A DNA stretch of 64,000 bases, from contig NC_063070.1 of the NCBI RefSeq assembly GCF_022605165.1, positions 558,001 through 622,000 on the forward strand, given 5' to 3'. The notes under the pieces are model-generated. The model ran no database searches. It had not been told where the DNA came from and saw nothing but the letters and a program-made list of their open reading frames with translations. This document shows positions 11,797 through 44,742 of this stretch, one piece after another. Origin of the DNA: Purpureocillium takamizusanense (lineage: Eukaryota; Ascomycota; Sordariomycetes; Hypocreales; Ophiocordycipitaceae). Made by a program: the position numbers and the translations under genes. Every line of letters begins with the position of its first letter. Position 1 is the stretch's first letter.

Positions 11797-13108
11797 TTAC
11801 GACGATGTCTGCGGAGGCTCTGTCGTCGTATCCCCAGTCGGCCCTCCCGAGGCAGCCTTCTCGTCGGCCGTCATGCCATAGAGTGCGTTCATGTTGTAGC
11901 GTTTGAGAGCCTCCCACTCCTTCCCGTCCACGACCGATATACCGCAGAAGAGCTGGCCATCTCAGTCAGCCAACCGGCCGGTCACCCTAAGCACCGCCAA
12001 CATACCTGGAAAATCTCTACCAAGATGACCTTGTCCGGGTTCCCAAGATTGACTTTGTGCCGCACATCGACAAGGCCCGCGATGCTCTTGATGACCTCGT
12101 CTGACTTGAACGTGACATGATTTCGAACGTTATGCCGAATAGCGTACTTTTGCCGGGTCAATTTTAGTCACCGCACAACACGGTGCCCATCAGGGAGGGA
12201 AAGGGGACCTACCGTGCAAGCCTGCCCATTGCTCACAGCTTGGGGCGCTTCCGCTGCTTCCACCCCTTCCTCTGGAATGAGGGTGAAGAACGGCGACAAG
12301 ACCGACCTTGCTACCCTGATGATGCCCTTTTCTGTCGCCTTATCTGTGTTGAACACGGGCGTGAGACGGTTGATGTATTTGACCTTTCGTTGCCTTGGGT
12401 CTGGACAGTCTCTGGCATCCCGGCAGATCTTGAGCACGAACTCGCCTGGCTTTATCGGCGCCATCGTCTTCATGAAGAAGAGGCACTCAATACCCGACGA
12501 CACGGGCGAGAAGATTTGTCGCACCTTGGGCTTTTTGCTGTCATCGCCCTTGATTGCGTCGAGCTCTCTCTTGATGGATGCCTCGATGTCCTCCTCAGCG
12601 TCCTCCTCCTCGTCCACTTCTGCCGCGCTCTGCGGCTTTATGTCGTACAGCGTCTCGCCGTACTGGGCGCCACCGCCTGGTCAGCCCTGTCGGGAGAATA
12701 GCCATGTGGCGGAAGCCATTCTTGAGGAACCGATGGGGAAAGGGAAGAGAGGGAGGAGGGTTGTTCTCACCTCTTCACAAAGCTGCTTGAACTCCCGCAT
12801 TGCCTTGGCCCTCATGCCCCGGGCGAACGTGACCCAGATGCCCTCATCTCCCACATCCAGCGCGACGCCCCCGTCAACCTTTTCGGCCATCTTGGCGTTC
12901 TGATGCGGCGTTTTCCACCTGCCCGAATTGCCGCCCTGGACATTATACTTCGTCAGCCAATGATCGTCTCCGAGTGGTAGCATGCTGTCTCGCGGCTGGG
13001 TTGAGACGACGTTCACCCGACGATGGGTGTGTGGCCTACTTTGCTTCGCTTGTACGAAGTGCGGCCGCCATCGGCACCGCCAGGTAGTTGCTTCCGCTTC
13101 CCACCCAT
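11797..13108 (-). CDS. TAN1: TAN1, THUMP-domain tRNA N4-acetylcytidine cofactor
   Basis: TAN1/THUMPD1 binds tRNA through its THUMP domain and partners the acetyltransferase Kre33/NAT10 to make ac4C12 in tRNA-Ser and tRNA-Leu. Five exons read as 13040-13108, 12771-12935, 12213-12662, 12006-12146 and 11797-11952 (minus strand); phases close exactly to 326 residues. Key blocks are GGNSGRWKTPHQNAK near the N-terminus, LDVGDEGIWVTFARGMRAKAM, EYGETLYDIKP, an acidic linker, and IECLFFMKT. The THUMP core follows: NRLTPVF, YAIRHNVRNHVTFKSDEVI, then GLVDVRHKVNLGNPDKVILVEIFQ, ending with CGISVVDGKEWEALKRYN. Introns have GTRNGN donors and CTGAC-like branch sites. The left inverted repeat of the neighbouring island begins 167 bp upstream of the ATG, inside the likely promoter. 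Assignment is secure. Confidence 0.93.
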
Positions 13109-13275
13109 CGCTACAGCGAGTCTCCTGGGTATGATCACGAAGCCTATAGAGTGATTGGGTGTTGCTTGCACGTCGATTGCGATGAGGGAGCCGCGACGCT
13201 GGTAAACATGCAAGCTCATAAATGTCGTCTCCACCGTTCCACCAAAATGTAATATTTTTGCGGCCATGAGGTACG

Positions 13276-13313
13276 AAGTAACGTCCTGCCCTATAATACC
13301 GTGGCTACCCTAA
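13276..13313 (+). repeat. Left inverted repeat of the island
   Basis: It begins AAGTAACGTCCTGCCC and ends GCTACCCTAA; the reverse complement of 16582-16619 matches it. A GTCGCA hexamer lies a few bases further inside each copy, so similarity may extend weakly beyond 38 bp. Confidence 0.85.
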
Positions 13314-13320
13314 GGTCGCA

Positions 13321-14400
13321 CCTCAATTTCCTAACGCGCCCGACTAAGCTAATTAATAATGCTTTCTTAAAACTTCTTTATTATTATTTTTAATTAAATA
13401 AACCTAAATTTTTATAATAATCTAATTAAAGGCTATAAATAAAGCTATAATATAAAATATACTTAAAGACCTTAAAAATAAAGGAAAAATTAACTAGATT
13501 AATCGGGCTTTAAGTATATTTAAACCTATATTAAAAGTAATATAATAAGCATTAAAAGATATAATAATGTCTTTTTTTATTAATTTAAAGAAATTTTTAT
13601 ATTTTAAATAATATTTATAAATTACCTCTCTTTAATATTTATTAATCTTTAATAATATTAAGACTTATATTAATAAAGAATTTATATAATAGGGCATTAA
13701 AGCTATAAGGTTAAAATATATAATACCCTTATATAAGAGGCTATTATATTAAGGCGAGAAAGATATTAAACCTATAGGATATAATCCTATTTATTTTTTA
13801 TTTCTTCTTATCTCTACCCGATATATTACTATATAAGGATACCGAATTCTAAGCTATCTTTATAGCTAAAAGGTTAGTTATAGGCTAATTAAATAGTCTT
13901 TAACGTTAGATACTTATATTTATACTTAGTTATAAAACTATATAGTAATCTATGCCTTAAGTAAAGTACTTATATTATTAAGGCATACTTATATCTAAAG
14001 TATTAAAAATAAGGTAAAAAGAGTAAGTATTATCGGCTATAACTAAGGAGGCATAGTATACTCCTTTTAACTAAGAAAGCTTCCCCCCTTTATAGTTATC
14101 CTTATAGTCTTATCCTTATAGCCCCTTTTTACTCCTAGCCGTTCCTTTAGCTATTTTTCGTCTTCCTTAGGCTATCTTCCCTCTTTTACTCCTTCTTCTA
14201 CTCCTTCCTCTATGCCTTCTCCTATTAATATACTATTAAAGCTTATTCTATAAGTACTATATAAGCTTAGATTTTTAAGCTTATATCTTATAATTTAAAT
14301 AGCTAACTAAAATATACTCTTCTTTAGCTTTTATATTTATCGTGCCTTTACTTAGCTACTATATAAATTAGCGTAACTATTATAATTCTGAAAGCTTCTT
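13321..14400. repeat. AT-rich RIP-degraded tract (repeat relic)
   Basis: Over about 1,080 bases I count by eye roughly five CpA and six TpG dinucleotides, whereas TpA is extremely frequent (around ten per 60 bases in dense lines). Loss of CpA/TpG with gain of TpA is the signature of RIP on a duplicated sequence. No ORF of useful length survives. Base composition changes abruptly at both edges relative to the GC-rich surroundings. The identity of the original element cannot be read from the remains. Confidence 0.85.
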
Positions 14401-15344
14401 ATTAGCTATTCATGCTTGCGCACACTAGAAATGGCTGGCGCGGTCTGGGAGTGGGGTGCGGACCCAGAAAAAAGTTGGGACACCTTTGCGGCGAGAGTTT
14501 CCTTCCTTTGTGAATACGAAGTAACTTCAATATTACTACGTACTCCTATTTATATCCACAGTCCCAACGCGACTACATGTCATGTCATGCAGACATTACC
14601 TGAATTTTTGTTCCTTGCAAACTATAGGAGACGCGATGCCAATGAGAGGGCAGCGAAGGTGCGGTTCTCACGCCTGCGTTACTTCATCGCATGAAATGGC
14701 CCACGCCAAGCCCTTCCTCCATGCATGCACGCGTGGAGAAGCGCATCACGCATGAGGCCTTTGGTTAGCTAGCCATATACCGGACCGACCAGCAAAGGTC
14801 GCATTCATCAATCAATCAATGCCCGAATCATCCGGAACCCGGCGGCCGGAGATGACTCCGAATACCGCAATAACTCGATTTGAGCATGGGAACTAACGGC
14901 ATCAACGCAATAGGCCGGTGGCCAAGCCAGTAAAGCATGGACATTGTATTGGCTGCCACGAGCTATTGGCAGAGCTCGGGGATAGGATATGCAGAAGCAA
15001 GTAGCTGCCCGGTCGTAGGGTTGAACACTGGGCTGGACGCAACCAGTAAAGTATACGAGTATGTAGATGCCTTATCAATCAGTATCCTTTTTGGGAGCAA
15101 GGCTTGCCTGCACACGGATATGCCGCCGACGCTTGTCCCATCACGTTTTATAGGGATGCCCCAGCCTGCGCATAAAGTTCATGCACGTCGTCTCATACGA
15201 TGGTCCATCAATAGTACGGTAGTGTTCGAACCTTGTTCATGCAGCTCATCTTCTATCATACGACGACATGGGTATGGACCCAACTGTCGTGCCGCGGCGC
15301 CGCGTGAGCCTTGCCTGCTGACCACGGGGCTCCCAAGCGACGCA
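14401..15344. other. Non-coding DNA between RIPed tract and secreted gene
   Basis: The GC content rises sharply here. The ORF at 14416-14694 has no domain features. The frame of the secreted gene is open upstream to an ATG at 14937, but the TATA box and signal peptide downstream argue that this is promoter sequence. Confidence 0.5.
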
Positions 15345-15352
15345 TATATAAG
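15345..15352 (+). promoter_or_regulatory. TATA box of the secreted GH64-like gene
   Basis: TATATAAG lies 137 bp upstream of the ATG at 15489. It is one of the few canonical TATA boxes in the window and suggests regulated rather than constitutive expression. Confidence 0.6.
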
Positions 15353-15488
15353 TTCAGAAGATTACTTCCGTCCTTTCGCCGTAGGAGATGTCAAGCACCG
15401 AGTACCTGTTTTCCGTCCCTATTCACCCTCGTTTGCCTCGCTCGGAAAAGCACCTGTCTCTCGTTTCAATCGCAAGTGCCCACACGCC

Positions 15489-16454
15489 ATGCTCTTCATC
15501 AACTCCGCCCTTGCTCTACTCTGGGCCGCCTCCTCTGCGAGTGCGGCCAGAGATGCAGATGGCAATTCTACAGTCATCGGCCAACCCAAACCCGTCGAAG
15601 AAGTGATTGTGACCGCCGACAACACAGTCAACGGTACTTATGTTGGCCCCGACACCACCGTCAACGTGCTTAAAAGCAAACTCTCTGTACGCGACAACAC
15701 TGCGGCCGCGCAGATCATGGCCTTCAAGCTCAGAAACAACAAGAACAAGGATTTCTACGCTTACATCGAGGGTAGAGACAGCAGTGGTCATGCTGTACTC
15801 GTCGGAGCAGACGGCATCGTGGTGACGCCCAGCTCTAAGAAATCCAGCACGCCCCGTCCTATCGACGACACGCCGGCAATCCGCGTACCTGCAAATACGC
15901 AGGGGGTTTGTGTTTCTGTTCCGCGTCTTGAAGGGGGCCGCGTATACTTTTCGGACAGAAAGCTCTTATTCTCCGTCGTGCACAACCCGGCAACCGACAT
16001 GGATTCCATAGTCGGTCCAAACTATGCCGACGACAACGACCCCAATACGCTGGCTCATTACGACTTCATCGAGTTCAACCAGAATCATGGTGATGGCGCT
16101 TTTGGTGCTGCCACCAACTCCGTCAAAATGATAGGCCTGCCATTCGAACTGCGCGTATCCGACGGCAGCGGGCGACCGAAGCCCGGGCTTGGCGTCAGCA
16201 ATCAATGCCTTGATAAGCTCTGCGAATTGGCTATTAATGAGCCAGCCTCCGGCCTCAAGTGCTTGCAAAATGCGAAAAGGGAGAACGTTCGAGTGGTGGG
16301 TGTCAAGGAGGGAAACGTTTATGACCCTTTGGACGCCTTCACCAAGTCGGATCGCTTCAAGGAGGCTTGCCTGAACAACGGGAGGACAGGGCTCGGTCAG
16401 GTTGGCAGCGCCAGGCCGCGCACCTTTATTATTGACGTTGGTGAACGCCGATAG
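15489..16454 (+). CDS. Secreted GH64 (beta-1,3-glucanase)/thaumatin-like protein, short form
   Basis: Uninterrupted gene of 321 residues. The chosen ATG opens a typical signal peptide: MLFIN, then a hydrophobic stretch ALALLWAASSASA. The mature part resembles the N-terminal barrel of GH64 laminaripentaose-producing glucanases: MAFKLRNN, YAYIEGRD, VLVGADG, VSVPRLEGGRVYFSDRKLLF, VGPNYADDNDPNT, YDFIEF and VKMIGLPFELRV. The Glu of FIEF matches the family catalytic Glu, but the catalytic Asp expected in VDMxxLP is Lys here (VKMIGLP). The protein also stops roughly where the second half of GH64 domains would continue. I infer a non-catalytic glucan-binding or effector-like protein; assignment to the fold is by remembered motifs. 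It lies inside the inverted-repeat island yet shows no RIP. A small ORF at 15388-15606 overlaps the start in another frame. Confidence 0.6.
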   Translation: MLFINSALALLWAASSASAARDADGNSTVIGQPKPVEEVIVTADNTVNGTYVGPDTTVNVLKSKLSVRDNTAAAQIMAFKLRNNKNKDFYAYIEGRDSSGHAVLVGADGIVVTPSSKKSSTPRPIDDTPAIRVPANTQGVCVSVPRLEGGRVYFSDRKLLFSVVHNPATDMDSIVGPNYADDNDPNTLAHYDFIEFNQNHGDGAFGAATNSVKMIGLPFELRVSDGSGRPKPGLGVSNQCLDKLCELAINEPASGLKCLQNAKRENVRVVGVKEGNVYDPLDAFTKSDRFKEACLNNGRTGLGQVGSARPRTFIIDVGERR

Positions 16455-16581
16455 GCTCCGTAACAGGCGAACCGGGACTTTCTTATATTAGGCATCGGCG
16501 TCAGTAGTAGCTCAGTGACCTACTTGAAGGGTTAATGCTTAATATAAATATAATTCATATATCCCTATTGCGACTTTTTAT

Positions 16582-16619
16582 TTAGGGTAGCTGCGATATT
16601 GTAGGGCAGGACGTTACTT
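16582..16619 (-). repeat. Right inverted repeat of the island
   Basis: It is the inverted partner of 13276-13313, with 34 of 38 bases identical and only transition differences. It lies about 130 bp beyond the secreted gene and about 260 bp from the stop codon of the pyruvate decarboxylase gene. Confidence 0.85.
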
Positions 16620-16879
16620 TATGTCTAGGCGGTTTGGACTACGTATATGCCTCACGCGATCAAATGTCAATGTCATTCACTTCTATGCCTGCCTCCTTTA
16701 GAATAAGCTCATGCTGTTAGTCTCCCGGTTTACTTTTCGAGACCCCGCTTGCCTCCCTGTCGTGTTTCTATTCTGCCCCTCATTACTCTGCTCGAAGAAC
16801 AATAAACACCATGCATTTGCGCCATCCAACCCGCCCGTTCTATCATTCCGAGGATCCCAATGAACAAGCCACTAATACC

Positions 16880-18884
16880 TTACGCCGTCTTCGCGTTATT
16901 TCTTGCGCTCGCCTCAGCCGTCATGATCAGCGCCCGCGGGGCATCTTCCTTGGGCATGTGCACCTCGATGAGCTGCAGGCACTTGCCTGCGTTGAACTCG
17001 GCGTCGGTGAGCAGCTTGTTCAGCTCGTCCTTTGTCCGGACGGCATACTTCTTGGACGTCTTGGCCCCGCCAAAGACGTCAACGAGGGCCTGGTGGTCCC
17101 AGGGCTGAATATCATTGTACCCGGCCTCCATGCCGTGGATGAAACGCTCGATGGTGTATCCCTCGTTGCAGAGGATGAAACTGCGAGGTTGTCAAGTCAG
17201 TTATGAATGCGTGTGGTGAGCAGGTCTAGTCACACAGGCACGTACAGGAAGGGTTTTAGCCCGTGACGGACCATGGTGCTCAGCTCCTGGGCCGTGAGTT
17301 GGAAGGAGCCGTCACCCACGAAGAGGACGGTCCGGCGCTTGGCACCCATGTCCTGCGCGGCAAGGGCGGCGCCCTGGCAGGCTCCGACGGACCAGCCGAT
17401 GCTGCCCCAAAGGACCTGGCTGAGCGCTGTAACGCCCTTGGGGAACTTGGTATCCCAGATGCCGAAGTTGGCGGTGCCAGTCTCCGTGACCACAATGTCG
17501 TTCTCAGCGAGGAACTCGCCGACCCGAGGCCAGAGCCACGCCTGCGAGATGACATCGGTCTTGTCGACATTCTTGCGAACCTCATTGTCCACCTTGGGCG
17601 ACGGCTGCACGGAGAGCTGCTTCACGTCGAGGCGGTCGATGACTTTGCGTAGGACGCCCTTCATGCGAACTCCCGGGTACGTCGAGTACCGGACGATGCA
17701 GTGGTCGCTGTGGAAGTCGATTGTCTGCATCTGCGACGTCCGATAGGAGAAGCCGGCCGTATTGAAGTCGCTCTGGGAATGAGAAATGGTCAGCCAGCCT
17801 GCAGTAGGGGGCAATGAAAGGTATTTCTGTGGAGAACAAGCGTCGGAGCCCGGGGATGAGCGGTTGCAGGGTGCGGCTTACCTTGAGCGCGCCAATACTA
17901 AGAATGAGGTCCGATGCCTCGAGCGTTTTCTTGACCTCAGGCTTGGAGCCCTCTCCGGCGTAGACGCCACCGTAGTTGGGGTGCTGCTCATTGACGGCAC
18001 CCTTGCCCATGGGGGTGACGAAGACGGGAAGGTTCGTCTTCTCGATGAGGTCGTGCACCTCCTCGAGGACGCGGTGGCGGATGGCGCAGGCGTCGACGAG
18101 GATGACGGGGCGCTCGGCAGCGTGGAGATACTTGAGGACGACGTCGACGACATAGTCTTCACGCTCGGGCTCGTTGGCAGGCTCAGTCAGGTCGAGGGGG
18201 GTCTGAAGCCTCTCGCCCTCGACCTTGGCCTCGATCATGTCGGTGGGCAGCATGACGTAGACAGGGCGGGAGTGAACCCAACACTCGCGCAGGGCCTGGT
18301 CGATTTGGGCGGCGATATCGGAGGGGTTGGTGAGGCGGGCGACGTTGCACGATATGTTGGCGCTCATGTTGGCGAAGACGTTGAAGTCACCGTTACCGAG
18401 GGTGTGGTGCAGGAGCATGCCGTTGCGCTGGGAGATGGTGGAGGGGCAGCCGACGATGTGAACGACGGGGATGTGCTCGGAGAAGGCGCCAGCCAAGCCG
18501 TTGATGGCCGAAAGCTCACCGACGCCAAAGGTGGTGACGAGGGCGGCCATGCGGTTGTTGACGCGGGCATAGCCGTCGGCGGCGTAGGCTTGGTAGAGAT
18601 GGAGACGTAAGGAGGAGAACCACACACCACGCGAATCGCACGAGAAGCAGGAAAAGAAGGGGAGGAGAGATTCACGATGACGACGACGCTGACGTACCGG
18701 CATTGAGCTCGTTGACGCTGCCCACCCACCGCAGGTCGCAGCCCGGCAGGTAGTCGAGGGCGACGAGGTTGTAGTCGCCGGGCACGCCGTGGACGGAGCG
18801 GACGCCGACCTGGTGCAGGCGGCGAAAGACGTACTCGGCGACGGCGACGGGCTGCCGGAGGCCCTGCACGCGCAGATCCGTCAT
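16880..18884 (-). CDS. pdc: Pyruvate decarboxylase
   Basis: Thiamine-diphosphate enzyme converting pyruvate to acetaldehyde and CO2 in the cytosol (fermentation and acetate bypass). Exons read as 18698-18884, 17882-18588, 17246-17772 and 16880-17180 (minus strand), 573 residues. Conserved positions seen: VPGDYNL (substrate Asp), [14 protein letters not shown] (ThDP Glu), [12 protein letters not shown] (paired His), ETGTANFG, and the ThDP/Mg motif [11 protein letters not shown] followed by [14 protein letters not shown]. Yeast Pdc1 has NN at the start of that last block; here the first Asn is Cys. Length and order fit the family. The three introns are 109, 109 and 65 nt long. The 3' end faces the right end of the island. 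The name is secure, but whether it is the main fermentative isozyme cannot be told from sequence. Confidence 0.95.
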
Positions 18885-44400: not shown

Positions 44401-44742
44401 GCGGGACATGTCTCGGCCGCTTAGTTAGTAAGATGGCGTGTGCCATGCTTGCGCTCGATGGTGGTGATGATGATGATGATGATGGATTTCATTAGTACTA
44501 GTATGTAATAGCATGGATGGCTGGCTGCCCAAGGACCCAAATGCCGCGCCGGGATGGATGACATCTAATAAACTAAGTTAGTTCGAAACCGTGCAGTTGG
44601 GCGCCTCACTTTGTTGATACGTAGTCACTAGTAATACCTCCGAACCGGGTGGCAGTTTACGGAAATCCGCCCACCCATGCCATGCGGCGGCCGCCACGCC
44701 GCCGCCGCCGTCTTCTCTTTTCTCCGTCCACACAGCGTCGAA

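What the first reader, a model, noticed from the sequence alone, without database searches (positions are those of the whole stretch)
13276..16619. A 3.3-kb island framed by 38-bp inverted repeats carries an intact secreted gene
The two repeats match at 34 of 38 bases with only transition differences, and AT-rich sequence lies just inside both. The interior is composite: a dead RIPed tract plus a clean GC-rich gene with signal peptide and TATA box. That is the shape expected of a mobile element that picked up, or landed around, an effector-like gene. No transposase is visible, so it would be non-autonomous or decayed.
Basis: partly seen in the sequence, partly recalled or inferred. Interest (0 to 1): 0.75.

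Follow-up and report, generated by a model that had tools for sequence, protein, structure and literature searches.

The report
Decayed transposon shell around secreted gene
In an insect-killing fungus, two matching inverted ends of a dead "jumping gene" family enclose an intact gene for a probably secreted protein that looks like a sugar-cutting enzyme missing one of its cutting residues; that the element once carried the gene is likely but not proved.

Summary
The 38-bp inverted repeat is real: 34 of 38 bases match, all differences are transitions, and shuffled windows give nothing like it. The arms are true transposon ends: the genome (Purpureocillium takamizusanense, by a database name) holds 10 more inspected ends of this family at 7 other loci; 3 of these loci have both ends (1.13-1.77 kb apart), 4 have one. 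The island's left 288 bp is the family's subterminal sequence. The dead tract is nested: an LTR-like dispersed repeat and a second short repeat, RIP-like from 13341 to 14410. The gene (15489-16454, 321 aa) is intact, single-copy and not RIP-like. It is a GH64-family protein, 25-30% identical to aligned relatives, about 130 residues shorter inside the domain; an Asp found in 23 of 23 aligned relatives is Lys here. No orthologue was found.

Against a simple cargo transposon: no target-site duplication, only 38 bp of family homology at the right end, no second gene-bearing copy, no close donor gene, no transposase match. Most likely a decayed non-autonomous TIR element that came to enclose the gene; the main rival is two separate relics bracketing a native gene. 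Gene-carrying DNA transposons are already known in fungi.

The parts
13276..16619 (.). Island bounded by the two TIRs (candidate element E1, 3344 bp)
   Evidence: one copy in the genome as a whole
13276..13313 (+). Left terminal inverted repeat, 38 bp
   Evidence: 34 of 38 to the right arm, 0 transversions
16582..16619 (-). Right terminal inverted repeat, 38 bp; no family subterminal sequence inside it
13276..13563 (+). A-type end of the TIR family (TIR plus subterminal, 288 bp)
   Evidence: 78% over 282 and 75% over 290 columns to two other elements, L047 and L048
13559..13741 (.). Strip shared with parts of a few other loci (L053, L056, L048); nature unclear
13742..14239 (+). LTR-like dispersed repeat, RIP-like, sharp left edge at 13742; right edge not fixed (weak similarity runs on to about 14408)
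   Evidence: 40 other places (lower bound); edge and flanks; extension to 14408 from a 148-column match to L049
14411..14516 (.). Second dispersed repeat, not RIP-like
   Evidence: 7 other places in the genome; alignments; composition
15345..15350 (+). TATA-box-like motif
15489..16454 (+). Intact gene, 321 aa, N-terminal signal-peptide-like stretch, GH64 domain
   Evidence: 97.1 bits against a cut-off of 27; codon usage; model
16455..16581 (.). 3' strip between stop codon and right TIR, GC 0.39, RIP-like indices
   Evidence: no A- or B-type subterminal similarity

Best explanation
One decayed, non-autonomous TIR (cut-and-paste type) DNA element of a small RIP-damaged family has come to enclose a complete single-copy gene. 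Shown: both ends belong to one repeat family and are each other's closest relatives over 38 bp; the left end carries the family's 288-bp subterminal; an LTR-like repeat lies nested in the left part; the gene frame is intact, single-copy and not RIP-like. Inferred: the gene entered the element by capture that replaced the usual interior up to the right 38-bp TIR (Pack-type or gap-repair-like), and the element never multiplied afterwards, so RIP had no duplicate to attack. Inferred function: a secreted beta-1,3-glucan-binding or wall-associated protein without hydrolytic activity.
For: Arms 34 of 38, no transversions, next best match of either arm 31 of 38; both arms start AAG, 0 of the other 10 ends do. 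The two arms of other two-ended elements match at 33, 33 and 26 of 38. Left 288-bp subterminal shared with two elements, far above shuffles. By my arithmetic, 12 ends in 35.6 Mb put a second, inverted end within 3.3 kb about 0.0006 of the time, if ends were scattered evenly (they are not: 7 of 12 lie in one 42-kb stretch of C2). Interior 14520-15480 single-copy and the gene at DNA level single-copy. Catalytic-position Asp is Lys213 against 23 of 23 aligned relatives; GH64/thaumatin-like fold retained in the model.
Against: No target-site duplication: best flank match 3 of 4 (TACG/TATG) over all offsets tried. The right end lacks family subterminal sequence. Over the inner 35 bases the right arm fits the left only slightly better (31) than two other ends (30, 30). 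No other gene-bearing copy, closest paralogues 34% and 32%, so no visible donor. 4 of 8 loci are one-ended. The one other euchromatic copy looked at, C3:536646, is one-ended.
Confidence: 0.55

Rival explanations
1. Two separate relics of the same TIR family, a truncated A-type copy on the left and a bare end on the right, bracket a native fast-evolving gene; the enclosure is coincidence.
For: No target-site duplication; right end without subterminal; one-ended copies are common, 4 of 8 loci, one of them 35 kb upstream on the same contig; gene codon usage is host-like.
Against: Family density is low (12 inspected ends in 35.6 Mb); the two arms are nearest to each other over 38 bp and alone start AAG.
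Confidence: 0.3
2. The island is a rearrangement product: recombination or faulty transposition between two family copies trapped the gene between ends of different copies, so the flanks never formed a duplication pair.
For: Different end types left and right and no duplication; a 14-bp repeat of the left junction recurs at 14515-14528 at 13 of 14, seen in 2 of 200 shuffles.
Against: Arms are most similar to each other; no partner copy with the matching right interior was found.
Confidence: 0.14
3. The 38-bp match is a chance inverted repeat.
For: None beyond the missing duplication.
Against: None in shuffles; a dispersed family with shared subterminals.
Confidence: 0.01

Closest known systems
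Transduplicating hAT elements carrying histone H3-like genes in fungi (Pyrenophora tritici-repentis, PMC3538342; Pseudocercospora fijiensis, PMC6710886; passages read)
   Same: A DNA transposon with TIRs holding a cellular gene between them, in RIP-affected fungi
   Different: Those are multi-copy, with hAT domains, TIRs of 18-20 bp and 8-bp duplications where described (PMC6710886); here one copy, 38-bp TIR, no duplication and no transposase match
Pack-TYPE / Pack-MULE elements of plants (PMC8903248, search listing only)
   Same: Non-autonomous TIR elements with captured coding DNA
   Different: Donor gene and family of gene-bearing copies not found here
mimp MITEs beside effector genes in Fusarium oxysporum (PMC3599309, abstract and outline read)
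   Same: Small TIR elements next to secreted-protein genes
   Different: mimps lie in promoters; here two ends flank the gene and the family differs in TIR sequence (mimp TIR recalled, not tested)
GH64 beta-1,3-glucanases (PF16483; 7vtk, 3gd0)
   Different: About 130 residues shorter inside the domain; Asp of the VDFVG motif is Lys213

Membership tests
Gene-carrying (Pack-type / transduplicating) TIR element | Terminal inverted repeats shared with a dispersed family | tested here: met
   12 inspected ends at 8 loci; shared subterminal
Gene-carrying (Pack-type / transduplicating) TIR element | Target-site duplication flanking the element | tested here: not met
   Best 3 of 4 for the island; other two-ended elements 8 of 10, 8 of 11 (or 4 of 4), 4 of 5 after a search over offsets, i.e. 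not convincing either
Gene-carrying (Pack-type / transduplicating) TIR element | Donor gene elsewhere in the genome, or several gene-bearing copies | tested here: not met
   Only 34% and 32% paralogues; no second copy of the interior
hAT superfamily | hAT transposase in the element, or TIR shared with a hAT element | tested here: not met
   6 PF05699 matches in the genome, none in the island; none of the 12 ends lies near one
hAT superfamily | 8-bp target-site duplication | tested here: not met
Mutator-like (MULE) | MULE transposase in the element or partner | tested here: inconclusive
   15 PF10551 matches, none in the island; two RIP-damaged ones lie between TIR elements on C2 (2996110, 3000780) but were not linked to this TIR
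Tc1/pogo (DDE_1) | DDE_1 transposase in the element | tested here: not met
   4 PF03184 matches, none in the island
GH64 (protein family) | Profile match above the curated cut-off | tested here: met
   97.1 bits against 27, profile positions 3-206 of 370
GH64 (protein family) | GH64/thaumatin-like fold | tested here: met
GH64 active enzyme | Catalytic Glu and Asp (roles recalled, not from a call) | tested here: not met
   Glu195 kept in 23 of 23; Asp in 23 of 23 relatives is Lys213 here. A3 holds 22 of the 120 listed (1212 found) proteins plus one genomic paralogue
LTR retrotransposon (nested repeat) | Same-strand pairs with a shared flank inside the downstream copy | tested here: met
   Ten same-strand pairs 7.8-13.4 kb apart by my reading; six distinct copies share one upstream flank and each is the downstream member of its pair. 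One inverted pair (C1:4484288/4493843) also exists
LTR retrotransposon (nested repeat) | Reverse transcriptase between the repeats | not tested
   No such search was run

The most novel reading that the evidence does not exclude
A RIP-proficient fungus kept a transposon-borne, never-amplified copy of a GH64 gene that turned into a new species-restricted secreted protein: shortened inside the domain, stripped of a catalytic residue, yet keeping a thaumatin-like core. That would be gene birth inside a TIR element, spared by RIP because the element never multiplied.
Probability: 0.25. Interest if true: 0.6.

Novelty: new member of a known kind. Interest (0 to 1): 0.4.

Why it matters
If the enclosure is real, this is a tractable single-locus case of a fungal DNA transposon housing an intact secreted-protein gene that RIP did not destroy, with an apparently species-restricted, probably non-catalytic GH64 derivative as its product. 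Presence or absence in related isolates would show directly whether transposon ends moved or formed the gene. If the rival is right, it is an ordinary native gene next to old transposon debris.

Tried and rejected
Chance repeat: rejected. Right arm as a normal family end: its inner 132 bases score at or near shuffle level against most ends (highest L049 13.8, reached by 2 of 300 shuffles; SL 11.9, 4 of 300; E3L 10.9, 21 of 300), while six true pairs score 27-99 (mononucleotide shuffles). C-terminal truncation of the gene by the right TIR: first suspected because the profile match ends at 206 of 370; the last residues instead align with the relatives' C-terminus, but weakly (shuffles reached the score in 22, 35, 159, 32 and 34 of 1000 for five relatives), and the model that places the last strand in the fold used the same alignment. 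The 505-aa frame upstream (14937-15488): nothing above Pfam's cut-off besides GH64 and intergenic-like codon usage. Rfam: no match in 12000-18000 at gathering level, none in 14380-14560 up to E 1. Transposase type: see Membership tests; the searches score only the best candidates. Horizontal origin of the gene was not tested by a tree: identities of 25-30% to all 23 aligned relatives give no nearest kin.

Rows dropped: one search gave 13 matches and its reversed control also 13, so at 3 mismatches it is not significant by itself. I kept 7 (those whose locus scored over 22 bits in the profile scan) and dropped 6 (C1:5692870, C2:3153086, C2:4605611, C3:729611, C9:884163, C10:747212). The profile and the pattern were built from ends already chosen, so 10 of its 11 matches were known beforehand; the new one is C2:2966213. 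C3:536650 comes and is not. One search (33 bases, up to 3 mismatches) found the left arm only.

Literature: seven searches of open-licence PubMed Central papers; no listed title or abstract opening describes this element or a GH64 gene in a transposon. Lists were partial (20 of 25; 10 of 15).

Full report
Observation. The inverted repeat is present at the stated coordinates: 34 of 38 bases, no transversions. Exact 18-base inverted pairs within 5 kb occur in the window only here and at one locus near 44465/46266; 20 dinucleotide shuffles gave a mean of 0.0. The window is C3:558001-622000 of a 35.57-Mb assembly in 14 contigs. A paralogous protein from the same contig is 100% identical to a record named Purpureocillium takamizusanense, and the published assembly has 14 scaffolds and 35.6 Mb (PMC9302088, whole text read).

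TIR family. A degenerate 35-place pattern with up to 3 mismatches found 11 matches genome-wide and none with the reversed control; it was built from ends already known. With C3:536650 there are 12 inspected ends at 8 loci. Four loci have two ends: the island (3.34 kb), C2:2992518-2993993, C2:3005919-3007683 and C2:2989449-2990578 (1.48, 1.77 and 1.13 kb). Four show one end: C2:2966210, C3:536646, C5:994714 and C9:2225612. The left 288 bp of the island is the subterminal of this family, 78% and 75% to two elements, far above shuffles. The right arm has only the 38-bp TIR. Over 38 bp the island's arms are nearest to each other (34, next 31) and alone begin AAG; over the inner 35 bases the margin for the right arm is 31 against 30.

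Interior. From 13742 an LTR-like dispersed repeat begins at a sharp edge. One search lists 40 other places, a lower bound; I read ten same-strand pairs 7.8-13.4 kb apart from that list. In one search, which compared 29 fetched loci (some overlapping), six distinct copies share one upstream flank, and each is the downstream member of its pair, as a 3' LTR would be. LTR identity is inferred; no retrotransposon domain was sought. A second repeat at 14411-14516 has 7 other places. Base composition is RIP-like from 13341 to 14410 and not in the gene; the 127-bp strip 16455-16581 also crosses the usual thresholds (recalled), on few bases. The region 14520-15480 has no other copy. None of 25 hAT, DDE_1 and MULE matches falls in the island. 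No target-site duplication is seen.

Orthologues. Two protein searches found only the window's own protein (4444 and 681 candidates), while the paralogue found 1212, among them a named P. lavendulum protein at 79% and an unnamed one at 84%. Candidates must share exact 5-residue words, so distant homologues can be missed, as the genome's own 34% paralogue was, and I did not check that every P. lilacinum protein is held. The gene is therefore apparently, not certainly, species-restricted.

Mechanism. Best reading: one decayed non-autonomous TIR element came to enclose a diverged, probably non-hydrolytic GH64-fold gene. Capture is inferred. The lack of other copies would explain why RIP spared the gene. 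The main rival, two unrelated relics, is favoured by the missing duplication, the bare right end and the commonness of one-ended copies, and disfavoured by low family density and arm similarity. The function is inferred from fold, signal-like N-terminus and the lost residue; a recent paper on fungal SUN proteins describes a thaumatin-like domain in beta-glucan-binding wall proteins (PMC13251364, passages read), which makes binding without hydrolysis plausible but tests nothing here.

Known context. Gene carriage by DNA transposons in fungi is established: histone H3-like genes on hAT elements (PMC3538342, PMC6710886; passages read). The island would be a new member of a known kind. It fails two usual tests, target-site duplication and donor or further copies, so I do not file it as a proven Pack-type element.

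Noticed in passing
L047, L048, L071 (C2:2966210-3007683): Seven of the 12 TIR ends lie in one 42-kb, mostly AT-rich stretch of C2, with two RIP-damaged MULE transposase relics (C2:2996110 and 3000780) between two of the elements.
   Followed up: partly
L018 / L052 (C5:109201-110182): Two copies of the LTR-like repeat in inverted orientation about 70 bp apart, 89% and 75% to the window copy.
   Followed up: no
window 13272-13285 and 14515-14528: The left junction recurs as a direct repeat, 13 of 14 bases, at the far edge of the second repeat; 2 of 200 shuffles matched it.
   Followed up: partly
window 14411-14516; L048:524-586; L074: GC-rich short dispersed repeat, not RIP-like, with 7 other places in the genome; in L048 it sits at a border between GC-rich and AT-rich DNA.
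   Followed up: partly
C2:4264893, C2:4304814, C2:4301343 and C1:4505531: MULE matches in open frames of 609, 935 and 506 codons and a hAT match in one of 828 codons, without stops: possibly intact transposase genes.
   Followed up: no
window 14937-15488: The reading frame stays open for 184 codons upstream of the GH64 start; codon usage there is intergenic-like.
   Followed up: partly
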